Assembly: GCF_024464185.1 (NCBI RefSeq)
Contig: NZ_JANHAU010000001.1
Coordinates: 1,054,001 to 1,118,000, forward strand
Source of the DNA: Haloarchaeobius salinus
GTDB lineage: Archaea > Halobacteriota > Halobacteria > Halobacteriales > Natrialbaceae
Length of the DNA stretch: 64,000 bases
Direction of reading: 5' to 3'
Shown here: positions 5,801-46,485 of the stretch, in pieces
How the letters are laid out: every line of letters starts with the position of its first letter
How positions within the stretch are numbered: position 1 is the stretch's first letter
Notes under the pieces: model-generated
What the model was told of the DNA's origin: nothing
The model's database searches: none
What the model saw: the letters and a program-made list of their open reading frames with translations, nothing else
Program-made: the position numbers and the translations under genes

Positions 5801-6016
5801 ATGGCGATCCTTCGACCCAGCGAGATCCGAGACCTCACCGCGCGGGAGCGCGAGGAAGAGCTCGACGAACTCGAGACGGAACTGCTGAACGCGAAGGCCG
5901 TGCAGGCCGCCGGTGGTGCCCCGGAGAACCCGGGCCGCATCGGTGAGCTCCGCAAGACCATCGCGCGCATCAAGACGATCCAGCAGGAAGAAGGCGACTT
6001 CGAGGACGACGAATAA
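5801..6016 (+). CDS. rpl29: Large ribosomal subunit protein uL29
   Basis: 71 residues forming the expected two-helix hairpin. It begins [20 protein letters not shown], and the C-terminal half contains [20 protein letters not shown]. It sits near the tunnel exit next to uL23. Its stop codon shares one base with the next gene. Confidence 0.95.
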
Positions 6017-6393: not shown

Positions 6394-6734
6394 GACTTGA
6401 CGTAACAGAACCTCCGGAACCCGAAGACCCGGAGACATACGACTACGAGAAGTGTCCGTTCTACGGCGATCTCTCCGTTCGAGGGCAGACCCTCGAGGGC
6501 GAGGTCGTCTCGACGGACATGGCAAAGACCGTGGTCGTCGAGCGGGAGTACGACGTTCACGTACCGAAATACGACCGGTACATGAAGCGTCGGTCGCGCG
6601 TCCCGGCACACGTGCCGGGCGTGCTCGAGCCCGAAGTCGGCGACACGGTCCGAATAGCAGAGTGCCGACCACTGTCGAAGACGAAATCGCACGTGGTCGT
6701 CGAGATAACCGATTCCGAAGGAGGTGACGCCTGA
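6384..6734 (+). CDS. rps17: Small ribosomal subunit protein uS17
   Basis: 116 residues, OB-fold. It has an archaeal N-terminal extension, then [20 protein letters not shown] and [16 protein letters not shown] typical of S17. The start overlaps the end of rnp1 and the stop overlaps the rpl14 ATG by one base. Confidence 0.97.
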
Positions 6735-7132
6735 TGGAGGCACTGAAGGCCGACGTCACGCAGGGCCTCGAGAAGGGGTCGCTGATTCACTGTTCCGACA
6801 ACAGCGGTGCACGACAGCTGAAGATCATCTCGGTCTCCGGCTACCACGGCACCAAGAACCGGCACCCCAAGGCTGGCATCGGCGACAAGGTGACCGTCTC
6901 GGTGACCAAGGGGACGCCCGAAGAGCGTCGCCAGGTCAAGGAGGCAGTCATCATCCGCCAGCGCAAGCCCATCCGCCGTCCCGACGGCACGCGCGTGAAG
7001 TTCGAGGACAACGCGGCCGTCCTCGTCAACGAGAACGAGGAACCGCAGGGCTCCGAGATCAAGGGCCCCATCGCGCGTGAGGTCGCAGAGCGCTTCGGAA
7101 GCGTCGCATCCACGGCTACGATGATAGTATGA
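6734..7132 (+). CDS. rpl14: Large ribosomal subunit protein uL14
   Basis: 132 residues. It shows the uL14 hallmarks [20 protein letters not shown] and [20 protein letters not shown], and ends with the conserved [18 protein letters not shown]. It lies at the subunit interface. It overlaps rpl24 by 4 bp. Confidence 0.97.
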
Positions 7133-7485
7133 CACGACAACCACGCAAACAGCGCAACCAGAGCGAGCACGCGCCCCTGCACCAGAAGGGCAAGCAGCTC
7201 AACGCGACGCTGGCCGAGGACCTCCGCGAGGAGTACGGAAAGCGTCGTGCCCGCATCAACGCGGGCGACACGGTCGAGGTCATGCGCGGCGACTTCGCGG
7301 GCGACGAGGGCGAGGTCCTCGACGTCGACGTGAAGTCCGGCACGATCTCCGTCGAGGAGGTCACGCTGGAGACGGCCGACGGCGAGGAAGTGCCCCGCCG
7401 TCTCGAGCCGTCCAACGTCCGCATCACGGAGCTGGACCTCGAGGACGAGGTGCGAGAGGCGCGGCTGGAAGGTGATGACGAATGA
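7129..7485 (+). CDS. rpl24: Large ribosomal subunit protein uL24
   Basis: 118 residues with an N-terminal basic segment ([20 protein letters not shown]) and a central KOW motif ([20 protein letters not shown]). This protein initiates assembly and lies near the tunnel exit. Its stop overlaps the start of rps4e by 4 bp. Confidence 0.96.
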
Positions 7486-8186
7486 CCAAGCACCAGAAGC
7501 GACTCTCCGTTCCGAACTCCTGGCCGGTCGAGCGAAAGACGAACACGTTCACGGTGAAGGCCGACTCCGGCCCGCACGGCGAGGCCGGCGTCCCGCTGGT
7601 CATCCTCCTGCGGGACGTCCTCGGCTACGTGGACTCGAAGAAGGAGGCCCGCTACGCCCTCAACCAGGACACCGTCCTGGTCAACGGCGTCGCGGTCTCC
7701 GACGAACAGCGCCCCATCGGCATGTTCGACATCGTGGCGTTCACCGAGCGTGACGAGTACTACCGTGTCTTCCCCGACGAGGGTGGTCGGCTCTCGCTGA
7801 CCCCCATCGACGAGGCCGACGCGGGCTCGAAGCTGGGCAAGATCGTCGGCAAGCGCCAGGTCACTGGCGGCGACACGCAGCTCACGCTGCACGACGGGCA
7901 GACGCTCCAGCTCGAGGACGCATCCGAGTACGGCGGGAACGACTCGCTCGTCGTCTCCAACGAGGGGACCGAGGTCGTCGCGCACTTCCCGTACGAGGAG
8001 GGCGCGCTCGTCACGGCCGTCGCCGGCAGCCACGCCGGCGAGGTCGGCGAGGTCGAGCAGATCGACGTCACGCCCGGTTCGGGCTCGAACACCGTCTCCG
8101 TCACGCAGGACGACGGCGGCTTCGAGACCATCGAGGAGTACGTCGTCGTCATCGACGAGAACTTCGTCGGAGGTGAGGACGAATGA
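7482..8186 (+). CDS. rps4e: Small ribosomal subunit protein eS4
   Basis: 234 residues, found only in archaea and eukaryotes. The S4 RNA-binding domain ([20 protein letters not shown]) is followed by the eS4 central domain ([13 protein letters not shown]) and a KOW-like C-terminal region ([20 protein letters not shown]). It overlaps rpl5 by 4 bp. Confidence 0.96.
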
Positions 8187-8704
8187 GCGAGTCCGCCGAG
8201 TTCCACGAGATGCGCGAGCCCACCATCGAGAAGGTCGTCGTCCACATGGGCGTCGGCGAGGGTGGCCGCGAACTCGCGAACGCGGAGGACATCATCGAGG
8301 CGGTCACGGGTCAGGAGTCCGTCCGGACCCAGGCCAAGTCGACGATGCCGGACTTCGGCATCCGTCAGGGCGACCCCATCGGCACGAAGGTGACGCTCCG
8401 TGGCGACGCCGCCCACGAGTTCCTCGAGATCGCGCTCGCGCTCGCAGACGTTGCCGCGACGCAGTTCGACGAGACCGGCAACTTCAGCTTCGGCATCGAG
8501 GAGCACACCGACTTCCCGTCGCAGGAGTACGACCCGAACGTCGGGATCTTCGGGCTGGACGTCACGGTCAACCTCGTCCGCCCGGGCTACCGCGTCGCCA
8601 AGCGCGACAAGCGGTCCCAGCAGATCCCGTCGAACCACCGCCTCGACGCCGACGACGCGATCGCCTTCGTCGAGGCCAACTTCGACGTCGAGGTGACACG
8701 ATGA
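8183..8704 (+). CDS. rpl5: Large ribosomal subunit protein uL5
   Basis: 173 residues, 5S rRNA-binding protein of the central protuberance. Recognisable segments are [37 protein letters not shown] and the C-terminal [17 protein letters not shown]. The stop overlaps the rps14 start. Confidence 0.97.
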
Positions 8705-8877
8705 GCGAAAGCGAAGAACTAGACACCGGCGAGCACGCCGCAAAGCGGACCGGTCAGATGGAGGAGTGCCAGCGCTGTGGCCGCAAGCAGGGCCTCGTTG
8801 GCAAGTACGACATCTGGCTGTGCCGGCAGTGCTTCCGAGAGATCGCCCGCGACATGGGCTTCAAGAAGTACCGATAA
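8701..8877 (+). CDS. rps14: Small ribosomal subunit protein uS14, zinc-binding type
   Basis: 58 residues, the short C+ form. A four-cysteine zinc site is intact: C23-x2-C26 and C41-x2-C44 (CQRCG and CRQCF). It ends with the conserved [13 protein letters not shown]. It overlaps rpl5 by 4 bp and is followed 2 bp later by rps8. Confidence 0.97.
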
Positions 8878-8879
8878 CA

Positions 8880-9272
8880 ATGACAGGCAACGACCCATTC
8901 AGCAACGCGCTCTCCGGCATCGACAACGCCGAGGGCGTCGGGCATCTCACCCACACGGTATCGCCCGCCTCCAACGAGATCGGGAGCGTGCTCGAGGTCT
9001 TCTACGACCGCGGGTACATCGACGGCTTCGAGTTCGTCGACGACGGCAAGTCCGGTCGCTTCGAGGTCGAACTGAAAGGTGCGATAAACGAATGCGGCCC
9101 CGTCAAACCGCGCTACTCCGTCGCGTCCGACGAGTTCGAGACGTGGGAGAAGCGGTTCCTGCCGGCACGCGACTACGGTGCGCTCATCGTGACGACCAGC
9201 GAGGGCGTCATGAGCCACTACGAGGCGCGCGAGCAGGGAGTCGGTGGCCAGGTTATCGCATACGTGTACTAA
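8880..9272 (+). CDS. rps8: Small ribosomal subunit protein uS8
   Basis: 130 residues. Typical segments are [40 protein letters not shown] and the C-terminal [20 protein letters not shown] that binds the central domain of 16S rRNA. The ATG at 8880 follows the rps14 stop by 2 bp; longer in-frame extensions run into rps14. Confidence 0.97.
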
Positions 9273-9276
9273 GACA

Positions 9277-9810
9277 ATGCGAGTAGAACTGGACATTCCG
9301 GACGACGTAACAGCCGAGATGGACCATCTCGACCTCACGGTCGAGGGTCCGAACGGGTCGGTCACACGCCGACTCTGGTACCCCGACGTCAGCGTGAGCG
9401 TCGAGGACGACCAGGTCGTCGTTGAATCCGACGCATCCGATGCGAAGACGAACGCCACCGTCGGCACCTTCGAGAGTCACATCAGCAACATGTTCCACGG
9501 TGTGACCGACGGGTGGGAGTACGAGATGGAGGTCTTCTACTCCCACTTCCCGATGAAGGTGCAGGCAGACGGTGGCGAGGTCGTCATCGAGAACTTCCTC
9601 GGCGAGAAGGCACCGCGACGAACGAACATCCACGGCGACACCGACGTGCAGGTCGACGGCGAGGAGCTGACCCTCTCCGGGCCTGACAAGGAAGCCGTCG
9701 GACAGACCGCCGCCGACATCGAGCAGCTCACCCGCGTCAGCGGGAAGGACACTCGCGTGTTCCAGGACGGCGTCTACATCACGAAGAAGCCCGCCAAGGG
9801 AGGTGCCTGA
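9277..9810 (+). CDS. rpl6: Large ribosomal subunit protein uL6
   Basis: 177 residues, two tandem L6 folds. The second contains FLGEKAPRRTNIHGDTDVQV and the C-terminal GKDTRVFQDGVYITKKPAKG. The start is the ATG at 9277, 4 bp after rps8. Confidence 0.97.
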   Translation: MRVELDIPDDVTAEMDHLDLTVEGPNGSVTRRLWYPDVSVSVEDDQVVVESDASDAKTNATVGTFESHISNMFHGVTDGWEYEMEVFYSHFPMKVQADGGEVVIENFLGEKAPRRTNIHGDTDVQVDGEELTLSGPDKEAVGQTAADIEQLTRVSGKDTRVFQDGVYITKKPAKGGA

Positions 9811-9813
9811 CGC

Positions 9814-10521
9814 ATGGCAGACGAACCACAGGAGATCGAAGACATCAGTGGTGTCGGCGAGTCCAAGGCCGAGGCGCTCCGCGCCGCCGGCTACGAGACC
9901 GTCGAGGACGTGAAGGCCGCGTCGCAGTCCGAGCTCTCGGACGTCGAGGGCGTCGGGAACGCGCTCGCCGCCCGTATCAAGGCAGACGTCGGTGACCTCG
10001 AAGTCAGCGAGGACACCGAGGCCGAGATCGAGGGCGACGAGGACGAGGAAGAAGAGCCCGAGGAGGACGTGGAGACCGAACTCCAGCCCCGCGGGCTCGC
10101 GGACAAGACGCCCGAGCTCTCCGAGGAGCACGAGCGTCTCCTCAAGCAGCGACGGACGGTCGGCAAGCCGCAGTTCAAGCGGCAGGACTACCACAAGAAA
10201 AAGCGCACGCCCGAGTCGTGGCGGCGCCCCACCGGCGGCCTCTCGAAGCAGCGACGCGGCATCAAGGGCAAGGGCCCGAAGGTCGAGGCCGGCTTCCGGA
10301 CCCCGACGGCGGTGCGCGGCAAGCACCCCTCGGGCTTCGAGGAGGTCTACGTGCACAACGTGGACGACCTCGAGGGCGTCGACGGCGACACGGAAGCGGT
10401 CCGCATCGCCTCCAAGGTCGGCGCTCGCAAGCGCGAGCGCATCGAGGAGCGTGCGGAGGAGCAGGGGGTTCGCGTACTGAACCCGACCTACATCGAAGTC
10501 GAGGTGGATTCGGATGACTGA
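9814..10521 (+). CDS. rpl32e: Large ribosomal subunit protein eL32 with N-terminal helix-hairpin-helix domain
   Basis: 235 residues. Residues 1-60 form a helix-hairpin-helix-like domain ([20 protein letters not shown], then [14 protein letters not shown]), followed by an acidic linker. The eL32 core starts at about residue 115 ([20 protein letters not shown]) and ends with [20 protein letters not shown]. The extra N-terminal domain is known from haloarchaeal L32e and is absent from shorter homologues. It overlaps rpl19e by 8 bp. Confidence 0.95.
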
Positions 10522-10963
10522 TCTGTCCGCCCAGCGACGACTGGCCGCCGACGTCCTCGACTGCGGGAAGAACCGCGTCTGGTTCGACCCGGACGCGCAG
10601 TCCGACATCTCGGAGGCGATCACCCGCGAGGACATCCGCGAGCTGGTCAACGAGGGTACGATTCGAGCCGAGGAGAAGCGCGGTAACTCCAAGGGTCGCT
10701 CCCGCGAGCGGAAGGCCAAGCGCGCCTACGGGCACCAGAAGGGGCCCGGCAAGCGCCGCGGCAAGAAGGGGGGGCGCTCCGACCCGAAGAAGGAGTGGCA
10801 GAACCGCATCAGAGCGCAGCGAAAGAAGCTCCACGAGCTCCGTGCTGAGGGCGAGATCGATCGCACCCAGTACCGCGAGCTCTACAACAAGGCCCGCGGC
10901 GGCGAGTTCCGGAGCGTCCAGTACCTGCTGAACTACATCGACAACAACTACGGTGACCAATAA
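10514..10963 (+). CDS. rpl19e: Large ribosomal subunit protein eL19
   Basis: 149 residues, archaeal and eukaryotic family. It begins [20 protein letters not shown], has the basic middle ([15 protein letters not shown]) and the helical end with [20 protein letters not shown]. It makes an intersubunit bridge. It overlaps both neighbours, 8 bp with rpl32e and 1 bp with rpl18. Confidence 0.97.
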
Positions 10964-11514
10964 TGGCGACAGGACCACGATACAAGGTTCCGATGCGTCG
11001 TCGCCGCGAGGTCCGGACGGACTACCATCAGAGGTTGCGCCTGCTGAAATCCGGCAAGCCACGGCTCGTCGCTCGAAAGAGCAACAAGCACGCCACGGCG
11101 CAGCTGATAGTCCCCGGTACCCAGGGCGACGAGACACTCGCGAGTGCGACCTCCGAGGACCTGGCCGACTTCGGCTGGGAGGCACCCACGGGCAACCTGC
11201 CCGCGGCGTACCTGACCGGACTCCTCGCAGGCAAGCGCGCACTCGACGCAGGCGTCGAGGAAGCGGTGCTCGACATCGGCCTCAACACGGCGACACCCGG
11301 TTCGAAGGTGTTCGCGGTGCAGGAGGGCGCGATCGACGCCGGTCTCGACATCCCGCACAACGACGACGTGCTGGCCGAGTGGCCACGGAACCGCGGCGAG
11401 CACATCGCCGAGTACGCTGAGCAACTCGACGAGCCGCTCTACAGCGGTGACTTCGACGCAACGGACCTTCCCGAGCACTTCGACGAAGTGCGCGAGACCC
11501 TGATGGAGCGATAA
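10963..11514 (+). CDS. rpl18: Large ribosomal subunit protein uL18
   Basis: 183 residues, 5S rRNA-binding. Hallmarks are [40 protein letters not shown] and [20 protein letters not shown]. The length with C-terminal extension is normal for archaea. Confidence 0.97.
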
Positions 11515-11515
11515 C

Positions 11516-12160
11516 ATGAGCGGCAACAACTACAACGACGGCTGGGAACCCGTCACACGGCTCGGAAAGAAGGTACAGGAGGGCGAGATCGACTCGATGG
11601 AGGCAGCCCTCAACTCCGGTCTCCCGCTGAAGGAGCCGGAGGTAACTGACCAGCTCCTGCCGGGGCTGGAGGACGAGGTGCTGGACATCAACATGGTCCA
11701 GCGGATGACCGACTCCGGTCGGCGGGTGAAGTTCCGCTGCGTCGTCGCCATCGGCAACCGCGACGGCTACGTCGGCTACGCCGAGGGGCGTGACGACCAG
11801 GTCGGGGCCGCCATCCAGAAGGCCATCGGCATCGCCAAGCTGAACATCATCGACGTGCCCCGTGGCTCGGGCTCCTGGGAGGACCGGAGTACGAAGCCGC
11901 ACTCGCTGACCCACCGGACGACCGGGAAGGCGGGCTCCGTCGAGGTCGAACTCATCCCCGCCCCGCTCGGGCTGGGGCTCGCGGCATCCGACACCGTCCG
12001 CAAGGTGCTGGAGCTCGCGGGCATCGAGGACGCCTGGACCAAGAGCTACGGCAACACGCGCACAACGGTCAACTTCGCGAAGGCGACGTTCAACGCGCTG
12101 GAGAACGCCTCGCAGTCCCGTCGCGCGCGTCTCCAGTCCGCCGAGGAGGTGGCCGAGTGA
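11516..12160 (+). CDS. rps5: Small ribosomal subunit protein uS5
   Basis: 214 residues. The double-stranded RNA-binding domain ([20 protein letters not shown], then [20 protein letters not shown]) is followed by the S5 C-terminal domain ([20 protein letters not shown]). It acts in decoding fidelity at the mRNA entry. One base separates it from rpl18, and it shares one base with rpl30. Confidence 0.97.
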
Positions 12161-12624
12161 TGCAGGCAGTCGTCCAGCTCCGCGGCGAGGTCGACCGCTC
12201 CGGTGCCGTCGACGACACGCTGTCGATGCTCAACATCGAGCGCGTGAACCACGCGACGCTGGTGCCGGAGACCGACAGCTACCGCGGCATGCTCACGAAG
12301 GTCAACGACTACGTCGCGATGGGCGAGCCAAGCCAGGACGTCCTGGCAACCGTGCTCGCAAAGCGCGCCGAGGTCGAGGAAAGCGGCGAGGCCCTCACTG
12401 ACGAGTGGGTCGCCGAGGAGACAGACTACGGTAGCATCGACGAGCTCGCCGAGGCGCTGCTGGCCGAGGAGACGACCCTCACGGACGAGGGGCTCTCGCC
12501 GGTCCTGCGCCTGCACCCCCCGCGCAAGGGGCACGACGGCATCAAGCACCCGACCAAGGAGGGTGGCGAGCTCGGCAAGCACACGACCGAGGAGATCGAC
12601 ACGCTCCTCGAGGCAATGCGATAA
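12160..12624 (+). CDS. rpl30: Large ribosomal subunit protein uL30
   Basis: 154 residues, archaeal long form. It begins [20 protein letters not shown] and has SMLNIERVNHATLVPETDSY; the C-terminal part includes LHPPRKGHDGIKHPTKEGGE. The ATG at 12160 overlaps the rps5 TGA. An in-frame GTG one codon earlier is possible but less likely. Confidence 0.96.
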   Translation: MQAVVQLRGEVDRSGAVDDTLSMLNIERVNHATLVPETDSYRGMLTKVNDYVAMGEPSQDVLATVLAKRAEVEESGEALTDEWVAEETDYGSIDELAEALLAEETTLTDEGLSPVLRLHPPRKGHDGIKHPTKEGGELGKHTTEEIDTLLEAMR

Positions 12625-12626
12625 CA

Positions 12627-13115
12627 ATGACGAGCAAGAAACGACGCCAGCGCGGCTCGCGCACGCACGGTGGCGGCACCCACAAGAACCGTCGTGGGGC
12701 CGGTAACCGTGGCGGCCGTGGCCGTGCTGGCCGCGACAAGCACGAGTTCCACAACTACGAACCGCTCGGCAAGCACGGGTTCAAGCGCCCGCAGGACATC
12801 CAGGACGACGTCGTCGAGATCAACGTCCAGAAGCTCGACGAGGACGCGGTCCTCTACGCGGCCGAGGACCTCGCCGAACAGGACGGTGACACGTACGTCA
12901 TCGACGCCCGCGACGTGGTCGACGGTGGCTACGACGCCGACGTCGTGAAGGTGCTTGGCGGCGGGCAGGTCCGCAACGAGCTGGCCGTCACCGCCGACGC
13001 CTTCAGCGCGAGCGCCCGCGGCCTCATCGAGGAGGCCGGCGGCGAGGCCGTCCTCTCCGAGCGGGCAGAGAGCGCCGAGGAGGACGACGCCGACGAAGAC
13101 GCGGCCGAGGAGTAA
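12627..13115 (+). CDS. rpl15: Large ribosomal subunit protein uL15
   Basis: 162 residues. The basic glycine-rich N-terminus (RRQRGSRTHGGGTHKNRRGA) and the C-terminal globular part (VKVLGGGQVRNELAVTADAF) are typical of archaeal uL15. The last ~20 residues are an acidic tail. It is the last gene of the continuous cluster; a 261 bp spacer follows. Confidence 0.96.
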   Translation: MTSKKRRQRGSRTHGGGTHKNRRGAGNRGGRGRAGRDKHEFHNYEPLGKHGFKRPQDIQDDVVEINVQKLDEDAVLYAAEDLAEQDGDTYVIDARDVVDGGYDADVVKVLGGGQVRNELAVTADAFSASARGLIEEAGGEAVLSERAESAEEDDADEDAAEE

Positions 13116-13376
13116 TCCGCCGCCGCCGTCTGACGCCCTTCTGCGGTTCTCTCGACTCCCGAAGAGTAGCTACCCGCCCGACCAGCGGGCCGGTCGTGGC
13201 GACGCTGACGGTTCGACCCCACTTGTTGCCGTCGGGGGCGGAATGTCGGGCTCCGTCACGAAGTGCATCTCCCGCACGGACCCGGTCTCTCAGTCGATTT
13301 CGACACGTACGCGCTCGTTCACTCGGCGCGGGCAAAGCGAAGTACATACAAGCATCCGTCCGGTTTGTCCCCGTAT

Positions 13377-14861
13377 ATGGGTTGGAAAGAAGCCGCCGAA
13401 CCGGTCCTTACCCGGATGCCCTCGGTCCAGCGACCGGAGGGCCACGTCCCGTTCAAGCGGAAGCTGGGCTGGACTGGCGGCATACTGGTGCTGTACTTCT
13501 TCCTCACGACGATCACCGTCTACGGGACGGCGGAGGTCGGAGCCGCAGGCGGAGCCGACGCGTTCGGACAGTTCCGGTCGATCCTGGCCGGTGCCAACCG
13601 CTCGATACTGCACCTGGGCATCGGGCCGATCGTCACGGCGTCGATCGTCCTGCAGCTGCTCGGCGGGGCGAACCTCCTCGGACTCGACACGGACGACCCC
13701 CGTGACCAGATCCTCTATCAGGGCCTGCAGAAGGTGCTGGTGCTGGTGATGACCGCGCTGACCGCCATCCCGATGGTGTTCCTCTCGGCCGGCATCCTCC
13801 CGGTCGCACCCGGTGCGCAGGAGACCCTGGCCGGCTTCGTCGGCGTCGGTAACGCCACGATGGCTACCCGATGGCTCATCTTCGCCCAGATCTTCATCGG
13901 CGGCGTCCTCATCCTGTTCATGGACGAGATCGTGAGCAAGTGGGGCGTCGGCTCCGGTATCGGGCTGTTCATCATCGCCGGCGTGAGCCAGCGCCTCGTC
14001 ACCGGGTTCATCGCGGTGTTCCGCGACTGGTTCAGCATCGCCACCGGGGCCACGGACATCAACGTCTTCACCCAGTCGGGCCTCGCCGACCTGCTGCTCA
14101 ATCAGGGCCACATCGTCGCGCTCATCACGACGCTGCTGATCTTCGCCATCGTCGTCTACGCGGAGAGCGTCCGCGTCGAGATCCCCCTGAGCCACGCCCG
14201 CGTCAAGGGTGCACGCGGTCGATTCCCCGTGAAGCTCATCTACGCGAGCGTCCTGCCGATGATCCTCGTCCGCGCGCTGCAGGCGAACATCGGGTTCCTC
14301 GGCCGCGGCATCAACAGTATGACGAACGCGCCGACCTGGCTCGTCCAGTACAACAACAACGGCCAGCCCATCGGCGGCCTGTTCTACTACCTCGCGCCCA
14401 TCCAGACGCCCGGCGACTGGATGTGGTGGGGCACCGGCACCGCGAGCTCCGTCGCCGCACAGGACGGCGTCATCCACGTCATCACCCGCGTCGGCGTCGA
14501 CCTCACGTTCATGATCCTCGGCGGTGCACTGTTCGCCATCTTCTGGGTCGAGACGACCGACATGGGCCCGAAGTCGACGGCGAAACAGATCCAGAACTCC
14601 GGGATGCAGATCCCCGGCTTCCGTCAGAACGTCGGCGTCATCGAGAAGGTCATGGAGCGCTACATCCCGCAGGTGACCGTCATCGGCGGCGCGCTCGTCG
14701 GACTGCTCGCCGTCATGGCGAACATGCTCGGCACCGTCGGGAGCGTTACGGGGACGGGCCTGCTGCTCACCGTCTCCATCACGTACAAGCTGTACGAGGA
14801 GATCGCCGAGGAGCAGCTCATGGAGATGCACCCGATGATGCGCCAGATGTTCGGGAACTAG
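13377..14861 (+). CDS. secY: Protein translocase channel subunit SecY (Sec61 alpha)
   Basis: 494 residues, polytopic inner-membrane protein forming the Sec channel. It begins MGWKEAAEPVLTRMPSVQRP, and hydrophobic helices are spread along the whole length, as expected for ten transmembrane segments. The cytosolic loop motif RVEIPLSHARVKGARGRFPV and the MRQMFGN end are typical of archaeal SecY. The start at 13377 is preceded about 30 bp upstream by AGTACATACA, a weak TATA-like box, so secY probably has its own promoter despite its place at the end of the r-protein cluster. Confidence 0.96.
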   Translation: MGWKEAAEPVLTRMPSVQRPEGHVPFKRKLGWTGGILVLYFFLTTITVYGTAEVGAAGGADAFGQFRSILAGANRSILHLGIGPIVTASIVLQLLGGANLLGLDTDDPRDQILYQGLQKVLVLVMTALTAIPMVFLSAGILPVAPGAQETLAGFVGVGNATMATRWLIFAQIFIGGVLILFMDEIVSKWGVGSGIGLFIIAGVSQRLVTGFIAVFRDWFSIATGATDINVFTQSGLADLLLNQGHIVALITTLLIFAIVVYAESVRVEIPLSHARVKGARGRFPVKLIYASVLPMILVRALQANIGFLGRGINSMTNAPTWLVQYNNNGQPIGGLFYYLAPIQTPGDWMWWGTGTASSVAAQDGVIHVITRVGVDLTFMILGGALFAIFWVETTDMGPKSTAKQIQNSGMQIPGFRQNVGVIEKVMERYIPQVTVIGGALVGLLAVMANMLGTVGSVTGTGLLLTVSITYKLYEEIAEEQLMEMHPMMRQMFGN

Positions 14862-40094: not shown

Positions 40095-40634
40095 ATGGAC
40101 GTGAAGATATACACCGGCCGTGGCGACGACGGCATGACCGACCTGCGGGACATGTCCCGGGTGTCGAAGACCAGCCCGAGGATCGAGGCCTACGGAACCG
40201 TCGACGAACTGAACGCACTCGTGGGGACGGTCCGGCCGACCGGCCACGACGACATCGACGAGAAGCTCGCAGGCGTCCAGAACCACCTCCACGTGGTCCA
40301 GGCGGACCTCGCCAACCCGGACCCCGACGAGGACGACCCGGTCGTCACGAGCGAGCACGTCGACCAGGTCGAAGCGTGGATCGACGCCTACGACGACGAG
40401 CTGGAGCCGCTGCAGTCGTTCATCCTCCCGACGGGCAGCGAGAAGGGTTCGCGGCTCCACCACGCACGGACGGTCTGTCGTCGTGCCGAGCGGCGCGCGG
40501 TCGCACTGGCAGCGGACGCGCAGACCAACGAGGACGCCATCCAGTACCTGAACCGGCTGTCGGACGGGCTGTTCGTCTGGGCGCGCGTGGTCAACGCGCG
40601 CGAGGGTGTCCCCGAGGAGAGTCCGTCCTACTAG
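40095..40634 (+). CDS. ATP:cob(I)alamin adenosyltransferase, PduO type
   Basis: 179 residues. It forms adenosylcobalamin from cob(I)alamin and ATP. The PduO motifs are KIYTGRGDDGMTDLRDMSRV at the N-terminus (ATP-binding), IEAYGTVDELNALVG, and HHARTVCRRAERRAVAL with YLNRLSDGLFVWARVVN at the C-terminus. The start at 40095 (MDVKIYTG) is well fixed by the family. Its TAG stop shares bases with the stop of the convergent signal peptidase gene (the palindrome CTAG at 40631-40634). Confidence 0.94.
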   Translation: MDVKIYTGRGDDGMTDLRDMSRVSKTSPRIEAYGTVDELNALVGTVRPTGHDDIDEKLAGVQNHLHVVQADLANPDPDEDDPVVTSEHVDQVEAWIDAYDDELEPLQSFILPTGSEKGSRLHHARTVCRRAERRAVALAADAQTNEDAIQYLNRLSDGLFVWARVVNAREGVPEESPSY

Positions 40635-41788
40635 AGCCAACCGCGAAGTCGCGCGAGGACGGACGGCCCGGAGGCTCCGCGCCGACGGTCACGAATTCGG
40701 CCGCGTCCCAGTACTGCCACCCCGGTGACGTACACGAGCCCGCCCAGCAACGCGTCGATGGCGACGATGGGCGCCCAGGGATGGACCCGGTAGAGCCAGT
40801 CGATGGTCCCCGCGGGCAGTACACCAAGGTATCGGTACTCGGCGACGAACCGGCGGTAGTAACCGGTGTCGTCGGCGGCGTGGAGCGTCAGCGTCGCGTT
40901 GGCCTGGCTCCGCCCGTCGACCTGAACGTGCCCCGGTGAGACGTCCACGCCCTCGCTCGCCGGTTCGAGGTAGACGTGGACCGGGACGAGCCCGCCGTTC
41001 GGCACCGCGTACGTGAGGTTCGACGACGTGCCCTGTCGGATGACCGTGGGGTTCTCGGAGTCGAACTCCGCGCTGACGACCCCGTACTCCTGGGTGCCCG
41101 CGGGGACGACCATCGCGGCGGTCGCGGCGACGACGACGAGCAGCGCGAACCCGACGAGCACGAGCCGAGCGGAGGTGCCGTCGTCACGGCTCGTCGACCG
41201 CTCGCGGCTGCGGCCGCCCCCTCCCGAGAGGTACCAGTCGACCACGTAGGCGACCGCCGAGAGCGCGAACAGGAGCGTCGCGAGTCCCTGCGTACCGAGC
41301 AGCGAGCGCGTCCCGAACAGGGTCGCGAGCCGTATCTGGGCCGTCTCCAGCACGCCCTGGAACCCCATGACGACGGTGCCGAGATGCGGAATCACGACTA
41401 CCTGCCCGTTCACCTGCAGCGCCGTCGCGACGATCTGGGCGTCCTTGACCGGTGGCTCGCCGCCGTCCTGGTCGGTGAACGGGTTGTTGTCCCCACGTGT
41501 GACGTATCCCCGCTCGGTCTCCCCGACGACGCGGTGTGTCGTCAGCCCGCCGCCCTGGACCTCCTCCGCCCGGAAGACGACCACGTCGCCCTCCGAGACG
41601 TCGCCCGCGACCGCCGACGGGACCGCGACGAAGCCGTCGCCGGGGTCCATCGTCGGCTGCATGCTCCCCGTCTCGACGTAGCTCAGGAGTATCGGCTGTC
41701 CGAGCACACTGCCCGCCACCAGCGAGACGACGACGACCGCGAGCAGCACCGTGGCTCCCCACGAGAGATACCGACGGTACGTGGACAT
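40631..41788 (-). CDS. SipW-type signal peptidase I with extracellular beta domain
   Basis: 385 residues. One N-terminal helix (YLSWGATVLLAVVVVSLVAG), then the S26B active-site Ser42 in VETGSMQPTMDPGD, His85 in GGLTTHRVVGE in place of the bacterial Lys, and Asp100 in GYVTRGDNN. This Ser-His form is that of archaeal and SipW peptidases. A TM segment near 180 and a second near 215-235 precede an extracellular beta-rich domain with VIRQGTSSNLTYAVPNGGLV and a C-terminal helix. It ends the minus-strand run that encodes the SipW-type exported proteins, so it is probably their dedicated processing enzyme. Start MSTYRRYLS at 41788. Confidence 0.88.
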   Translation of the reverse strand: MSTYRRYLSWGATVLLAVVVVSLVAGSVLGQPILLSYVETGSMQPTMDPGDGFVAVPSAVAGDVSEGDVVVFRAEEVQGGGLTTHRVVGETERGYVTRGDNNPFTDQDGGEPPVKDAQIVATALQVNGQVVVIPHLGTVVMGFQGVLETAQIRLATLFGTRSLLGTQGLATLLFALSAVAYVVDWYLSGGGGRSRERSTSRDDGTSARLVLVGFALLVVVAATAAMVVPAGTQEYGVVSAEFDSENPTVIRQGTSSNLTYAVPNGGLVPVHVYLEPASEGVDVSPGHVQVDGRSQANATLTLHAADDTGYYRRFVAEYRYLGVLPAGTIDWLYRVHPWAPIVAIDALLGGLVYVTGVAVLGRGRIRDRRRGASGPSVLARLRGWL

Positions 41789-41876
41789 CAGCGTCACTCC
41801 CCCCACCCGTAGCAGTCAGCAGCCGCGCTGAAAAGGTATCGCCATGATAGTCCCGGGGAGTGGGACCGCTGCCGGT

Positions 41877-43412
41877 TCATGGACCGACAAGCCGCCGACC
41901 CAGCACGACCGCGACCAGCAGTGTGGCCCCGGTGACGACCGCCAGGACCGCGAGCGCAGGCTCGGACGAGCCGGGGACGTCCTGGGAGGGTGAGATATCT
42001 GGGCGAGCCGGGTCCGGGTCCGGGTCCTCATCACGCGAGGCTGGCGTCCCCGGCTGGTCCTGCTCGGCGCGCCCGTCCCCGCCGTCCCGTGGTTGCTCGG
42101 ACACGACGACGGTTCCGGCGTCGACGCCAGCGACGGAGACCTCGTACTCGCCCGGCTCGCCGAAGCTGACGCGTTCGCGGACGGTCGTCGACTCGTCGGG
42201 GCCGAGTTCGACGGTCGCCGAGTCGACGCGGTCGCCTTCGACCCTGACCGGGACCCGCCGCTGCCCGTCGTCCCGGCCGATGTTCTCCAGCTCGGCGGTG
42301 ATCGTCGTCGCGTTCCCGGGTGTCACCTCACGGGCCCCGACCCCGGCGTCGACGACCTCGATGGCGGGGAGCGCGGTCGCGACGACGATGCTCGACAGCG
42401 CCGACGCGTTCGCGGCGTAGTGTATCCGTTTCCCACGCTCGACCATCGCGGCGTCGAGCGCGGTCCAGCCGTCGCTCCCGAGCCGGTACACCGTCACGTC
42501 GTCGGGGTCGGTCCCGCGCCAGTCGAGGTAGTCGCGGTCCACGCTGACGTACACGGTCGCGTCGCCGACCGAGTCCGGGACGCGCTCGCGGTCCAGATGC
42601 ACGTACCCGTCGGCGCGCACGTGGTCCGCTCCGAGCCCGGGCAGCCCGCCGAACGGCCCCGGCCGACCGGCAACGTCGAACTCGACGACGCTCCCGGTCG
42701 CCGCGAAGGCGACCCGGTCGAGGGTGACGTTCGCGCCCGCGACGTGCATCCCGTCGAGGCCGACCGAGACGCGGTCGTTCCCACCCAGCACCGTCACGCC
42801 GCGGCGGTTCGGAGCCGTTGACGTGACGGTCGTCGTGGTGCCGTCCGACGGCGCGATGGCCGCGCTTCCGTCCCCGTCGCCGGAGTCACTCTGCTCCGTG
42901 GCTGGGTCGCGCTCGTCACCCTCGGCGGCGACGACCGCGTTCACCTCGAAGCTGTCGACGACCACGTCGGGGAGCACGTCGTCGGTCGACACCACGCGCA
43001 GCCCCACCGCCACGCTCTCGTTCGGCGCGAGGTGGACCGCCCCGTCCGCCCCCTCGATGGGCTCGCCCCGCGCGGTGAACGTCGCCAGCGGGTGCCCGGA
43101 CTCGATCCAGACCCGCGCCGTGCTGTCGCCCTCGTTCGTGATGGTGAACACCGCCGGGACAGCTGTGACCGCGTCTTCGTTCGGCCCGTCGCCCTCGACG
43201 TTCGGGTTCGACGCGCTCAGGTCGACGGCGAGCTCGTCGTCCGCGTCGTAGTAGGCGTACTGGCCGTTCGGGCCCGGGTGCGGTTCGAGGACGATGGACT
43301 GGCCGATGTCGTCGTCCTGGGTGAGCTGGACCGCGCCGGTTCCCTGGAGGAGTGCGAGGGCTATAGCGAGGGTTGCGAGAGTCGTGAGGAGGAGTTTGGT
43401 GGTGCTATCCAC
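41877..43412 (-). CDS. Large DUF1102/TasA-like exported protein with C-terminal membrane anchor
   Basis: 511 residues from a GTG at 43412; GGAGG lies 9 bp upstream, which supports this start over the ATG at 43544. A helix TKLLLTTLATLAIALALLQG is followed by the module shared with the two small exported proteins of this cluster: GPNGQYAYYDADDELAVDLS, then GPNEDAVTAVPAVFTITNEG. Further beta domains follow, including a CARDB-like GNATTITAELENIGRDDGQR. A Pro/Asp/Glu linker and a final helix (ALAVLAVVTGATLLVAVVLG) anchor the end. By context it may be the base, or a TapA-like nucleator, of the fibre; that is inference. Confidence 0.7.
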   Translation of the reverse strand: MDSTTKLLLTTLATLAIALALLQGTGAVQLTQDDDIGQSIVLEPHPGPNGQYAYYDADDELAVDLSASNPNVEGDGPNEDAVTAVPAVFTITNEGDSTARVWIESGHPLATFTARGEPIEGADGAVHLAPNESVAVGLRVVSTDDVLPDVVVDSFEVNAVVAAEGDERDPATEQSDSGDGDGSAAIAPSDGTTTTVTSTAPNRRGVTVLGGNDRVSVGLDGMHVAGANVTLDRVAFAATGSVVEFDVAGRPGPFGGLPGLGADHVRADGYVHLDRERVPDSVGDATVYVSVDRDYLDWRGTDPDDVTVYRLGSDGWTALDAAMVERGKRIHYAANASALSSIVVATALPAIEVVDAGVGAREVTPGNATTITAELENIGRDDGQRRVPVRVEGDRVDSATVELGPDESTTVRERVSFGEPGEYEVSVAGVDAGTVVVSEQPRDGGDGRAEQDQPGTPASRDEDPDPDPARPDISPSQDVPGSSEPALAVLAVVTGATLLVAVVLGRRLVGP

Positions 43413-43486
43413 TGCTACCGGCCTCCGTGCTGTCGGCTGCTCGATTTTGAGTTCCCATCCTCCGTGCCACCACCGCGAAGACCCAC

Positions 43487-43505
43487 CGGCGGAGTCGAAC
43501 CGCCG
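43487..43505 (-). repeat. Isolated tRNA T-arm hairpin (possible att remnant)
   Basis: On the minus strand CGGCGG-TTCGACT-CCGCCG is a perfect 6 bp stem with a 7-base T-loop. The bases after it (GTGGGTC) look like the 3' strand of an acceptor stem. No D- or anticodon arm precedes it, so it is not a tRNA gene. It lies between a GC-rich gene and the low-GC part of the cluster, where an integration remnant would be expected. Confidence 0.35.
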
Positions 43506-43615
43506 ACTCGGATGATGTGAAACAAGGGGGGATGTATGTTCCAATCAGCCAAGGTTCCAAAGTGGGTGCCTCTCGTCTGTCTAAAGAATCGATATTGAGT
43601 TGGTTGGTCGCTCGG

Positions 43616-43741
43616 TCAGTTTTCGAACAGGCTTTCCAATTCGGCGTTTACTGCACCTTCGCTAATGTCAGTGTCCGAGAGATCGAACGTGACATCAGCC
43701 ATGTCCTCGTACGTCGAGAGGGTTGGTGGTTCGTTTGACAT
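43616..43741 (-). CDS. 41-residue acidic ORF in the fibre operon
   Basis: The ORF starts with ATG at 43741, 7 bp after the stop of the preceding exported-protein gene, and ends at 43616. It begins MSNEPPTLSTYEDMADVTFD and ends DISEGAVNAELESLFEN: acidic, no cysteine, no signal, one probable helix at the end. Its AT content equals that of the preceding gene, and the tight spacing suggests translation in the operon. Function unknown; not certain to be expressed. Confidence 0.5.
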   Translation of the reverse strand: MSNEPPTLSTYEDMADVTFDLSDTDISEGAVNAELESLFEN

Positions 43742-43748
43742 GATATCC

Positions 43749-44384
43749 TTAGGGCTGTTTTGCAGTTATCTGAATTTCGTCGCTTACCTCTACTGAACCT
43801 ATTGCACTGGATGGAAGTGCCAGTGCAATGAGATTGAACCGGAGCTCATCGCCAGGACTGAGTCCTTTAATACCGATGAAGGAAACCTCCTCTGGGACTG
43901 GTATCCCTGGCCAGATAACTCCCCATTCAATATCCACCTCGACCTCGTCCGGGTTTTGTGGTTCTAGGAGCACTGCGAGGGCCCCATCGATGTCCGGTGG
44001 GAAAATCTGGCCATCAATATCACCGTAGGCTAACGGTGTCACGGCGACATCGACTTCCTGCGTCCCTTGGTTCTGAATCTTGAAGATGTCACCGATACTG
44101 GTGACAGCATTGGTGTTGATACCTTCCCCACCGGCAACACCGCTTCCGATGTTGTTATTATCGTCGGTCAGGCTGATTGCCAGTGCATCGTTCGAGGTCG
44201 TGTCAGCGTAGTTTCCGTTCGGACCATCGCCGGGCTGGATACCAAGATATGCGCTCGCGTCGTTTGCGACGGTGACACTGATGTCACGCTCGGCTTCTAC
44301 GTTGGAAAACGCACCGGTACCCATTGCTGCCGCACCGCCTCCGGCGAGAGCTCCGAGGCTCAACACGAATTTTCTACGATTCAT
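43749..44384 (-). CDS. TasA/AbpA-like exported protein 1
   Basis: 211 residues. The N-terminus MNRRKFVLSLGALAGGGAAA then GTGAFSNVEAERD is the SipW-type signal, with cleavage expected after about residue 31; it also starts with an RRKF pair as in Tat signals. The core has PGDGPNGNYADTTSNDALAI, GINTNAVTSIGDIFKIQNQG and TQEVDVAVTPL, shared with the next gene and the 511-residue protein. All beta thereafter. In TasA, camelysin and AbpA such proteins polymerise into fibres. GC is about 53 percent in a sampled line, far below the genome. It follows its paralogue by 11 bp. Confidence 0.8.
   Translation of the reverse strand: MNRRKFVLSLGALAGGGAAAMGTGAFSNVEAERDISVTVANDASAYLGIQPGDGPNGNYADTTSNDALAISLTDDNNNIGSGVAGGEGINTNAVTSIGDIFKIQNQGTQEVDVAVTPLAYGDIDGQIFPPDIDGALAVLLEPQNPDEVEVDIEWGVIWPGIPVPEEVSFIGIKGLSPGDELRFNLIALALPSSAIGSVEVSDEIQITAKQP
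43801..43829. repeat. 10 bp-stem hairpin inside exported-protein gene 1
   Basis: ATTGCACTGG and CCAGTGCAAT are perfect reverse complements separated by 9 bases. They lie within the last 30 codons of the gene at 43749-44384. In mRNA this could form a stable hairpin near the 3' end, possibly tuning the level of the downstream genes. Confidence 0.35.
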
Positions 44385-44395
44385 AGTAGGTCCCT

Positions 44396-44935
44396 TTAGG
44401 TGGCGTCAGCGTCGAAGGTCACCGAATCGAGGAGCTCGTCGCCGTCACCCACACTTTCACCTTCCGTGTCGATCTCGATACTGACAGTGACACTGCTACC
44501 AGTACTGAGGGTGACTGAGTTACTTCCAATCGAGTTTCCGTCGTAGGCGTTACTGTCAGTGTAGAACTTCACCAGAGAGCTATTGTCTCCGGTCTTGCTG
44601 AGACTGACGTCAACCTCTTGAGTTCCCTGATTCTCGATGACAAAGAGGTCATCTATTTGCGTAACTGCATCGGGGTTGACCCCGTCACCACCAGCACTAG
44701 TTGCGTTGCTGGAATCCAGGTTGATGGCCAGCGTTCCACCGTCCCCATCGTCGGTCACGTACTCGGAGTTAGCGCCACCGGTCCCCTCAAGCCGAAGGTA
44801 CGCGCTTGCGTCGTCAGCAACCTCAACGTCGATATCTCGAGTTGCACTCACACTCGTGAACGCCCCAGTACCTAATGCGGCTGCCCCGCCGGCAGCGAGC
44901 GATCCGACCCCTGCGATGAACTTGCGTCGTTCCAT
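44396..44935 (-). CDS. TasA/AbpA-like exported protein 2
   Basis: 179 residues. The SipW-type signal is MERRKFIAGVGSLAAGGAAA then GTGAFTSVSATRD, again with an RRKF start. The mature part has DDASAYLRLEGTGGANSEYV, GTLAINLDSSNATSAGGDGV, NPDAVTQIDDLFVIENQGTQ and EVDVSLSKTGDNSSL. It is the first gene of the minus-strand run, 12 bp before its paralogue. The low GC and the use of AT-ending codons match the paralogue. It is the likely major fibre subunit by analogy with TasA; that is inference. Confidence 0.8.
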   Translation of the reverse strand: MERRKFIAGVGSLAAGGAAALGTGAFTSVSATRDIDVEVADDASAYLRLEGTGGANSEYVTDDGDGGTLAINLDSSNATSAGGDGVNPDAVTQIDDLFVIENQGTQEVDVSLSKTGDNSSLVKFYTDSNAYDGNSIGSNSVTLSTGSSVTVSIEIDTEGESVGDGDELLDSVTFDADAT

Positions 44936-45376
44936 GGTCGTGTTCTACCTCGTTCGAGCGACCACCCACGAGCGCACGTCCCCCAGTTCCCCCCGGGTGA
45001 CGCCGGCCCGTACCGGGTCGCTTCACTCCAACCCCACGGGACATACCCCTACTGTATTGAGTGACCTGAGAGAGGGTGCCACAGTCGTTAAATTCGACAG
45101 GTCTCGTTCAGACCCGGTCCGAAGCACCCTCTGACCCTGTCTGAAGCGCGGCGATTTGGTATCGACCACGCACAACCGTCGGTTAGCCGACTGAACCGCC
45201 ACCGAAATCAGAGGATGCCTATCAAACGCCGATAGAGCCGTTAAAACCGTCGATATCTCCCGATTAAACGTCCCCGTAAGCCGCTAATAATGGGCTAAAC
45301 CCACCCCGCGAACTGATAGTTTCGCTGAAGAGTCGGCCACCTTTTTGTGCTAGCGAGTTAACAGGACACCTGTCGT
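44936..45376. promoter_or_regulatory. Divergent control region of the fibre cluster
   Basis: 441 bp without an ORF, rich in symmetric elements. GAGGGTGC (near 45072) and GCACCCTC (near 45123) are an inverted pair; TTCAGAC and GTCTGAA lie within and just beyond it. Several GTTAAA/ATTAAA elements are repeated between 45086 and 45300 (CGTTAAATTCG, CCGTTAAAACC, CCGATTAAACG). ACAGGACACCTGT at 45361-45373 is an inverted repeat ending 3 bp before the ATG of the DUF7344 gene. Such a region suggests complex regulation. Confidence 0.45.
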
Positions 45377-45961
45377 ATGGGGGTTGCAAAAGCGAAGGGG
45401 GACGAGGAGGCACAGCCTTCCACACGTGTCTCCGAGGACGAGCTGTTCGACGTGCTCTCGAACCACCGCCGACGGTACGCGGTGCACGTCATGAAACGAG
45501 AGGACGCGGAGCGACTGGAGCTCGGCCCGATGGCCGAGCAGATCGCGGCCTGGGAAAACGAGGTCGAACTGGCGGAGGTGGGCTACGAGGAGCGCAAGCG
45601 GGTCTACACCGCGCTCCAGCAGCAGCACCTGCCGATGATGGACGACGCGGGCGTCGTCGAGTTCGACAAGGACCGGGGGGTCGTCGAGCCGACGCCCGCG
45701 CTCGCGGACGTGGACCTCTACCTGGACGTCGTCCGGGGGAAGGAGATCCCCTGGAACGAGTACTACCTCGGGCTCTCGGCGGTCTCGGTGGCGCTCGTGG
45801 CCGGCGTGGGGCTGGACGTGACGCCCTTCACCGTCCTTCCGGAGTTCGCCTGGATGGTGTTCATCGTGGTCTCGTTCGCCTGCTCGGCGCTGGCCCACCG
45901 CTACTACGTCGCCGAGCTCGAACTCGGCGGGGACGGGGAACCACCGGAACTGGAGGGATGA
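45377..45961 (+). CDS. DUF7344-type winged-helix regulator with two membrane helices
   Basis: 194 residues. The winged helix covers about 20-115: SEDELFDVLSNHRRRYAVHV, then ERKRVYTALQQQHLPMMDDA and GVVEFDKDRGVVEPTPALAD. Two hydrophobic helices follow (YLGLSAVSVALVAGVGLDV and FAWMVFIVVSFACSALAHRY), so the DNA-binding part would face the cytoplasm from the membrane. It is divergent from the fibre operon and overlaps the exported-protein gene after it by 4 bp. By position it is the likely regulator of the cluster. Confidence 0.8.
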   Translation: MGVAKAKGDEEAQPSTRVSEDELFDVLSNHRRRYAVHVMKREDAERLELGPMAEQIAAWENEVELAEVGYEERKRVYTALQQQHLPMMDDAGVVEFDKDRGVVEPTPALADVDLYLDVVRGKEIPWNEYYLGLSAVSVALVAGVGLDVTPFTVLPEFAWMVFIVVSFACSALAHRYYVAELELGGDGEPPELEG

Positions 45962-46485
45962 CACGCCTCAAGCTGCTGAGCGCCGTGCTCGCCGTGGCGG
46001 CAGCAGCCGCGCTCGTCACCGGAAGTGCGGGCTTCTCGTCGGTGACTGCCGAGCGAGGCGTCTCGGTCAGCGTCGTCGAGGACGACCAGGCGCTCGTGAA
46101 CGTCGAGGCCTGCTACACGTCGGCGAACCCGAACCAGGGGACCCAGACGCCGGTAACGGTCAGGGTGACGAACCAGCTCCCGAGCGCCCTGACCGTCGAG
46201 CACGTGAACGACGTGGACGTCACGGATGGCCAGGAGACCGTCGCCCCCGGCGGGCAGGTGATGTTCAACCAGCCCTACGACTCGCCGGTGTCCGCGGTCA
46301 CCGTCGAACTCGAGAGCGAGGGTGGGACGGGCGTCACGCTGACCCGGACGGTCGTCGAGAAGTCGAACTGTCCGTTCCAGGCCGGGAACGGGGAGAATGG
46401 TGGCAACGGAGCCGGCGGCCCCAGCGATGGTGACGACAACGAGGACGACGACGGCGATGATACCGACGAGAGCGACGACGACTGA
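45958..46485 (+). CDS. SipW-type exported protein with acidic tail
   Basis: 175 residues. Residues 1-31 are a signal peptide (LKLLSAVLAVAAAAALVTGS, then GFSSVTAERGV) with the same cleavage context as the two fibre proteins. The beta-rich middle contains TPVTVRVTNQLPSALTVEHV and VAPGGQVMFNQPYDSPVSAV, and two cysteines. The last ~45 residues are Gly, Asn and Asp (EDDDGDDTDESDDD). It is co-transcribed with the DUF7344 regulator. It may be an accessory or anchoring subunit. Confidence 0.75.
   Translation: MTRLKLLSAVLAVAAAAALVTGSAGFSSVTAERGVSVSVVEDDQALVNVEACYTSANPNQGTQTPVTVRVTNQLPSALTVEHVNDVDVTDGQETVAPGGQVMFNQPYDSPVSAVTVELESEGGTGVTLTRTVVEKSNCPFQAGNGENGGNGAGGPSDGDDNEDDDGDDTDESDDD

What the first reader, a model, noticed from the sequence alone, without database searches (positions are those of the whole stretch)
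40631..46485. Candidate TasA/AbpA-like surface fibre system with its own signal peptidase and regulator
Seen: a SipW-type signal peptidase, a 511-residue anchored protein and two small exported proteins that share one core (G-N-x-x-Y, then L-A-[IV]-x-L, then [IE]-[NDP]-x-[DN]-A-V-T with F-x-[IV]-x-N-x-G), a 41-residue ORF, and divergently a DUF7344 regulator plus a fourth SipW-type exported protein. Known: Bacillus tapA-sipW-tasA makes biofilm fibres, and AbpA-type subunits form archaeal bundling pili by donor-strand exchange. Inference: this is a haloarchaeal fibre locus, with roles of the large protein and small ORF unassigned.
Basis: partly seen in the sequence, partly recalled or inferred. 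Interest (0 to 1): 0.8.

Follow-up and report, generated by a model that had tools for sequence, protein, structure and literature searches.

The report
Tat-exported fimbria locus with docking microprotein
A salt-loving archaeon carries a gene set for thin surface fibres of a kind described in 2025, and beside it a conserved 41-residue protein that looks like the smallest form of a docking piece by which proteins without an export signal could ride out of the cell on a fibre subunit.

Summary
The genes are real and conserved. The locus is not Bacillus tapA-sipW-tasA but a variant of haloarchaeal Tat-fimbriae (tafi). Both small subunits carry twin-arginine signals, and the best PDB match of each, by sequence and by Foldseek, is the Natrinema sp. 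J7-2 Tafi pilus (9p0a). A genome carrying the 9p0a pilin has a similar gene set around it. The subunits miss the curated TafA/TafE cut-offs, so they are not canonical TafA/TafE. The fibre reading is therefore largely ordinary.

The unexpected part is the 41-residue ORF (S41). Its profile finds 17 of 293 genomes of the order, 17 of 17 times right after the two-subunit block; in one of them it is fused in frame to the second subunit. Four more loci carry divergent versions. In seven genomes, 12 signal-less proteins start with a related ~36-residue module; 8 of 12 then carry beta-helix, PKD or GLUG domains, and 5 of 12 abut a Tat-signal subunit gene by -4 to 0 nt. Best reading: a docking module that binds the last subunit before export. 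Whether it leaves with it as a Tat hitchhiker or is a cytosolic chaperone is undecided. New variant of a known kind.

The parts
40631..41788 (-). signal peptidase I, S26 family, with C-terminal extension (called SPase)
   Evidence: TIGR02228 62.5 bits vs cut-off 51.85; Pfam S26; linked in 11 of 17 named loci
41877..43412 (-). 511-aa protein: signal, DUF1102-like subunit domain, CARDB domain, C-terminal hydrophobic segment; likely anchor/base (called L510)
   Evidence: CARDB 27.3 vs 22.7 bits, DUF1102 15.3 bits below cut-off; over-length homologue in 3 of 17 named loci
43616..43741 (-). 41-residue acidic protein without signal (called S41); stand-alone docking module
   Evidence: 17 of 293 genomes, 17 of 17 directly after M179-M211; purifying selection; fused to M211 in G023
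43749..44384 (-). 211-aa fimbrial subunit with Tat signal (called M211)
   Evidence: 9p0a E 2.5e-14; RR in 23 of 23, GA|F site in 23 of 23 homologues
44396..44935 (-). 179-aa fimbrial subunit with Tat signal (called M179)
   Evidence: 9p0a E 7.6e-13; model and Foldseek; RR in 23 of 23, site in 22 of 23 homologues
45377..45961 (+). DUF7344 protein, probable regulator (role not tested)
   Evidence: Pfam 2.5e-29; linked in 13 of 17 named loci and in canonical tafi loci
45958..46485 (+). 175-aa exported protein without twin arginine (called X175), in the position of TafC
   Evidence: TafC model 23.6 bits vs cut-off 410, E 2.5e-5; same 4-nt overlap with DUF7344 as TafC in L057

Best explanation
This is a fimbria locus of the haloarchaeal Tat-fimbriae (tafi) kind, nearest to the solved Natrinema sp. 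J7-2 pilus. M179 and M211 fold in the cytosol, leave by Tat and are cut at GTGA|F, probably by the linked peptidase. The freed N-terminal strand of one subunit completes the beta-sandwich of the next (donor-strand exchange). L510 anchors the fibre; DUF7344 regulates. S41 is made right after M211, binds it in the cytosol, and is the minimal form of a docking module: it either caps M211 against early polymerisation or leaves with it as a Tat hitchhiker and sits at the fibre end, where relatives carry a beta-helix, PKD or GLUG adhesin. Shown: gene set, signals, homology and fold, S41-M211 linkage, one S41-M211 fusion, module-cargo proteins. Inferred: donor-strand assembly, peptidase-substrate pairing, S41 binding, co-export, which subunit is the shaft.
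For: Sequence match to the solved Tafi pilus and Foldseek top ranks 9p0a, thread, AbpA for M179 and 9p0a, AbpA, thread for M211. Unpaired N-terminus in the M179 model. Twin arginines 23 of 23 in both subunits. Similar gene set around the exact 9p0a pilin in G228. S41: 17 of 293 genomes, 17 of 17 after M179-M211, the same 17 genomes in which the M211 profile scores 220 bits or more, in-frame fusion in G023, divergent versions in four more, signal-less cargo proteins with a related start in seven genomes with beta-helix, PKD or GLUG domains in 8 of 12, profile comparison with permuted controls.
Against: Subunits are below the TafA (190) and TafE (155 bits) cut-offs. VIA Z of the M179 model to 9p0a (8.6) is tied with a ciliary protein, so fold alone does not decide. 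Six S41-bearing or related named loci show that parts can be missing: of 11 S41 loci 3 lack a peptidase and 1 lacks DUF7344 within the flank. S41 against the module without intermediates is only 34% probable, and the best permuted control nearly reached it (19.1 vs 19.35). The M211 profile was built mostly from S41 loci, so one search is partly circular. No S41-M211 contact could be examined: the joint model is weak (pLDDT 63.8) and no coordinates are returned. Three of 12 module proteins have no subunit gene seen upstream.
Confidence: 0.72

Rival explanations
1. S41 does not bind M211. It is a regulatory or translation-linked microprotein of the operon, and the likeness to the cargo module is short and coincidental.
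For: The direct S41-module comparison is weak (34%); S41 has no known family in Pfam, PHROGs, NCBIfam or PDB; the joint model shows no testable contact.
Against: One in-frame fusion of S41 to the exported M211; same place after M211-like genes for S41, divergent S41 and module proteins; 0 of 150 permuted controls reach the score for A1, core rows and A6, and 0 of 100 for the intermediates.
Confidence: 0.2
2. S41 is only a cytosolic chaperone: it caps M211 against early polymerisation or early export and stays behind. (A narrower form of the best explanation, set apart from hitchhiking; not exclusive of the rest.)
For: S41 has no signal; TapA in Bacillus is a chaperone that acts by strand complementation (PMC10151520, passages).
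Against: In G023 the S41 domain is part of the Tat-signal protein; 8 of 12 proteins with the related module carry domains typical of surface proteins and have no signal (hydropathy tested for 7 of the 12).
Confidence: 0.35
3. A SipW/TasA-type matrix system as in Bacillus, exported by Sec.
For: Weak SipW match of the peptidase (33.6 bits); mature start A-F as in TasA and TapA; X175 and L510 lack twin arginines.
Against: RR in 23 of 23 homologues of each small subunit; SipW cut-off 190 not reached; best matches are Tafi, thread and AbpA; no TasA chain among the eight sequence hits of the subunit profile.
Confidence: 0.05
4. The proteins are single surface or envelope proteins that share the fold but do not polymerise.
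For: No filament has been observed for this species here; common beta-sandwich folds give similar VIA scores.
Against: Sequence homology to a subunit of a solved pilus and free N-terminal tail in the M179 model.
Confidence: 0.08

Closest known systems
Tafi pilus of Natrinema sp. J7-2 (PDB 9p0a)
   Same: Homologous subunits, Tat signal and GTGA|F site, and in G228, which carries the 9p0a pilin (170 of 170 residues searched), a peptidase, an L510-like protein, DUF7344 and an exported partner nearby
   Different: One pilin there, two here; the G228 locus also has a DUF5305 homologue and a 902-aa ORF; no S41 or module match was found in G228
Canonical Tat-fimbriae TafA/C/E/F (locus L057, G109; Galeva et al. 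2025, not readable here)
   Same: Tat-signal subunits, DUF7344, peptidase of the same family (35% identical), exported protein overlapping DUF7344 by 4 nt
   Different: TafA, TafC, TafE, TafF pass their cut-offs there and not here; LamG domain in TafC absent in X175; gene order differs; G271 has both kinds
AbpA bundling pili (7ueg) and S. acidocaldarius threads (7pnb)
   Same: Fold: Foldseek ranks 2 and 3 for both models
   Different: No sequence match; thread subunit is described as Sec-exported (PMC9715654, passages)
Bacillus TapA-SipW-TasA
   Same: Linked signal peptidase; A-F mature start; donor-strand principle
   Different: Tat signals here, SipW cut-off not reached
Tat hitchhiker co-export (Rodrigue et al. 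1999, title seen in a reference list)
   Same: A signal-less partner would leave with a signal-bearing one
   Different: Known cases are enzyme complexes (title and recall); here the carrier would be a fibre subunit and the partner a 41-residue protein or an adhesin; untested

Membership tests
Tat-fimbriae, broad sense | Subunits homologous to the subunit of a Tafi pilus | tested here: met
   9p0a: E 7.6e-13, 2.5e-14, profile 7.2e-15
Tat-fimbriae, broad sense | Twin-arginine signal on the subunits | tested here: met
   RR in 23 of 23 homologues of each subunit by pattern; no signal predictor was available
Tat-fimbriae, broad sense | Linked signal peptidase and DUF7344 gene | tested here: met
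   Present in the window; 11 and 13 of 17 named loci
Tat-fimbriae, broad sense | Filaments made of the subunits on cells | not testable with these tools
   Needs microscopy
Canonical TafA/TafE equivalogs | NCBIfam cut-offs (TafA 190, TafE 155 bits) | tested here: not met
   Best TafE 77.2, best TafA 47.7 bits
Canonical TafC | NCBIfam cut-off 410 bits | tested here: not met
   X175 23.6 bits
Bacillus SipW | NCBIfam NF046067 cut-off 190 bits | tested here: not met
   33.6 bits
TasA | TasA fold as nearest fold | tested here: inconclusive
   Not among the 50 rows shown; absence from the list is no proof
AbpA/thread filaments | Same subunit fold | tested here: inconclusive
   Foldseek E 2.7e-3 and 5e-4, VIA Z 7.5 and 7.2 with rmsd 11; unrelated folds score alike
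Tat hitchhiker | Signal-less protein exported with a Tat substrate | not testable with these tools
   Only linkage, one fusion and cargo domains

The most novel reading that the evidence does not exclude
S41 is the smallest member of a new docking-module family that lets signal-less proteins leave the cell as folded complexes with a Tat-exported fimbrial subunit. Alone it caps or ends the fibre; fused to beta-helix, PKD or GLUG domains it places an adhesin on the fibre. A fimbrial subunit would then be the export vehicle for cargo assembled in the cytosol, which as far as I recall no chaperone-usher, sortase or TasA-type system does.
Probability: 0.42. Interest if true: 0.82.

Novelty: new variant of a known kind. 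Interest (0 to 1): 0.62.

Why it matters
How donor-strand subunits that fold inside the cell avoid polymerising there, and how adhesins reach such fibres, are questions I saw no answer to (the primary tafi paper could not be read here). A 41-residue partner linked to one subunit, with a natural fusion and cargo-bearing relatives, makes both directly testable and might give a small tag for exporting folded cargo through Tat.

Tried and rejected
Tried without result: the tafi paper (PMC11821415), the AbpA paper (PMC9245690) and a guessed preprint DOI are not held. Paper searches on TafA/TafE, haloarchaeal fimbriae and J7-2 Tafi listed no primary tafi paper; a search on Tat hitchhikers and archaea listed five papers, none on pili by title. 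In these searches I saw nothing in print on S41 or its module, but the library is partial and the key paper unread. One scan of viral contigs with the subunit profile (a single peptide pattern) gave 32 pattern matches and no confirmed relative. Plasmids: partial matches of M211 in 4 records, none over 80% of it. No PHROG, Pfam or NCBIfam match for S41, no PDB match for its profile. TasA was not among the listed fold matches.

Considered and rejected: S41 as a copy of the M211 C-terminus, suggested by a poor alignment; profile comparison gives P 0.057, probability 1%. S41 as a spurious ORF: dN below dS in 97 of 97 usable pairs, median ratio 0.28; 39 of 136 pairs were dropped for saturated dS; third codon positions vary most. 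Weak module-profile hits in ORFs of about 400-430 aa at E 1e-4 to 1e-2 cover only part of the module and were not counted; their context was not examined. A degenerate remnant in G413 was not counted.

Limits: the M211 profile was built from S41 loci, so the 17-for-17 match is partly circular; the freer test is the S41 profile search with the context check. Of the 12 rows of that profile 10 came from tblastn with S41, one is the window and one was read by eye beside M211. The intermediates L123, L125 and L126 were found by position, so their hits are not independent. The seven rows of A7 were found by position and weak profile hits; the independent finds are G399, G400 (two) and G263 (two). 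One search scored at most 12 candidates a genome. Order-wide counts refer to 293 genomes drawn from a larger group.
Full report
OBSERVATION. The seven ORFs are present. Pfam and NCBIfam give DUF1102 for the 179-aa protein M179 (31.9 bits, cut-off 22.2), CARDB plus a sub-threshold DUF1102 hit for the 511-aa protein L510, DUF7344 for the divergent gene, archaeal signal peptidase I for the peptidase, and sub-threshold TafE, TafA and TafC hits for the small exported proteins. The window is G000:C1:1054001-1118000 of a 3.85 Mb genome in 17 contigs. The closest named relative found is Haloarchaeobius iranensis (93% for M179). In this genome the TafA and TafE profiles match at E 1e-3 only inside this locus.

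CONSERVED NEIGHBOURHOOD. The one scan of genome contigs with M179 gave 17 named loci. By tblastn with the window proteins, DUF7344 is linked in 13 of 17, the peptidase in 11 of 17, an L510-type protein over most of its length in 3 of 17, and the 41-aa ORF S41 in 10 of 17; an eleventh S41 (L016) was read in the frame after M211. Of these 11 S41 loci, 8 have the peptidase and 10 have DUF7344 within the flank.

EXPORT ROUTE. Both small subunits start with RR signals in 23 of 23 homologues; the GTGA|F type site was recognised by pattern in 22 of 23 for M179 and 23 of 23 for M211. X175 and L510 lack the twin arginine. The aligned range of PDB 9p0a starts at residue 28, which by the alignment is the F of GTGA|F. 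TasA and TapA also start at A-F (PMC10151520, passages).

IDENTITY OF THE FIBRE. M179 matches PDB 9p0a at E 7.6e-13, the 211-aa protein M211 at 2.5e-14, and the mixed subunit profile at 7.2e-15; the record is titled 'Structure of Natrinema sp. J7-2 Tafi pilus'. The AlphaFold2 model of mature M179 (32-row alignment, pLDDT 80.3) has strands from residue 22 on and none in the first 20 residues, which have lower confidence. Foldseek ranks 9p0a (1.1e-5), the S. acidocaldarius thread (5.0e-4) and AbpA pili (2.7e-3) first, then type 1 pilus subunits and PapD-like folds. VIA Z for the three is 8.6 (136 residues, rmsd 9.6), 7.2 and 7.5; a ciliary domain also scores 8.6, so fold alone does not decide. 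The M211 model, made with S41 attached (pLDDT 63.8), ranks 9p0a, AbpA and thread first in Foldseek and AbpA 6.6, 9p0a 6.5, thread 5.7 by VIA. Tat-fimbriae were described by Galeva et al. (iScience 2025), known here only from passages and the reference in PMC12687288.

COMPARISON OF LOCI. A canonical tafi locus (L057, G109) has TafA, TafC, TafE and TafF over their cut-offs plus DUF7344, DUF5305 and a peptidase. TafA over cut-off occurs in 18 of 293 genomes of the order. G228, which carries the 9p0a stretch searched (170 of 170 residues), has on one strand the pilin, a protein matching the N-terminal and CARDB parts of L510, a peptidase and a homologue of the DUF5305 protein, and on the other a 902-aa ORF, DUF7344 and an exported 348-aa protein. 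The window has this architecture without the DUF5305 homologue and the 902-aa ORF, with two subunits, and with S41. G271 carries both a TafA over cut-off and an S41 locus, so these are distinct systems.

S41. The profile of 12 S41 sequences finds 17 of 293 genomes (10 of 87 genera) at E 1e-3. In 17 of 17, the window's genome included, it follows M179 and M211 on the same strand. In 23 loci resolved before the script stopped (some are the same species twice), the gap from the M211 stop to the S41 start is -1 to +7 nt. Selection acts on the protein: 97 of 97 usable pairs have dN below dS, median 0.28; 39 of 136 pairs were set aside for saturated dS. The M211 profile scores 220 bits or more in exactly the same 17 genomes, among 94 of 293 that match at 1e-12. 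The next four genomes (G325, G256, G215, G249; 120-177 bits) carry 44- to 52-residue ORFs of similar pattern at the same place. In G023 S41 is fused in frame to the C-terminus of M211: 253 aa with Tat signal, a linker and an S41 domain scoring 41.1 bits against the 12-row profile. Among 5168 stop-to-stop ORFs of a chosen set of loci, the other hits at E up to 5 were three ORFs directly after M211-like genes, at E 0.5 to 1.6.

CARGO PROTEINS. In G290, G192 and G211 the slot after an M211-like gene holds signal-less proteins of 341, 651 and 369 aa, starting -4, -1 and 0 nt from the end of the subunit gene, with an S41-like start (profile E 0.04, 0.034 and 0.0013 in the small set; full ORFs). Seven such starts, from four genomes, were aligned as A7. 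The A7 profile then found five more: G399, G400 (two), G263 (two); G399 (0 nt) and one of G263 (-4 nt) again abut a Tat-signal subunit. In all, 5 of 12 abut a subunit gene; four lie further down in such clusters (G192 425 aa, G211 269 aa, G110 356 and 617 aa); for three (G263 664 aa, G400 642 and 684 aa) no upstream subunit was seen, the last lying at a contig end. Pfam domains over cut-off: beta-helix in 4, PKD in 3, GLUG in 2, together 8 of 12 proteins, one having PKD and GLUG; the other 4 have none over cut-off. Seven of the 12, and the signal-less 199-aa protein of G110, were tested for hydropathy and have no 19-residue window above 1.6. S41 and module profiles compare at P 4.2e-4 (probability 34%) and, with the positional intermediates added, P 2e-7 (94%). 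Column-permuted controls never reached the real score (0 of 150, 0 of 150, 0 of 100, 0 of 150), but came close for the two sets without intermediates (19.1 vs 19.35; 20.3 vs 22.42).

MECHANISM. Tat carries folded proteins, and some substrates leave as heterodimers with one signal (PMC10924467, start of abstract). Subunits that polymerise by donor-strand exchange but fold inside the cell need a partner or a masked groove (inference). S41 is encoded next to M211, is fused to it once, and its likely relatives head proteins of surface type without signals. I infer that S41 binds M211 in the cytosol and may leave with it. In the joint model S41 is two helices (residues 196-203 and 216-228; block pLDDT 72-81), but the tool returned no coordinates or error matrix, so contact is untested. 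L510 as base, M179 as shaft and M211 as end subunit are inferences from architecture.

VERDICT. The fibre reading is right but names a kind already known. The locus is a new variant; the S41/docking-module family is the part worth following.

Noticed in passing
window 43616-44935: M179, M211 and S41 have GC3 of 0.55-0.61 while the flanking genes of the locus have 0.89-0.91. The same contrast is seen in L009, L011 and L014 but not in the Natrinema-type loci tested; the trio may have been exchanged as a cassette in Haloarchaeobius.
   Followed up: partly
L010 (Haloplanus ruber) 9001-10261: M179, M211 and S41 occur with no match to the peptidase, DUF7344 or a full L510 within the 9 kb flanks.
   Followed up: no
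L157 (G192) 3022-12542; L156 (G290) 9268-13414: Clusters of many Tat-signal subunit genes, some 358-536 aa long with extra C-terminal sequence.
   Followed up: no
L159 (G110) 7010-7609: A signal-less 199-aa protein starts 1 nt inside the end of an M211-like gene but is not recognised by the S41 or module profiles and has no Pfam match.
   Followed up: partly
window 40631-41788: The peptidase is 385 aa, much longer than the S26 region matched (residues 10-90); its C-terminal half has a sub-threshold beta-sandwich match (MalQ_N, 16 bits), and the long form recurs in the relatives.
   Followed up: no
L098 (G228) 7978-10686: A 902-aa ORF lies between the 9p0a pilin and DUF7344 on the divergent strand, with no NCBIfam match.
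   Followed up: no
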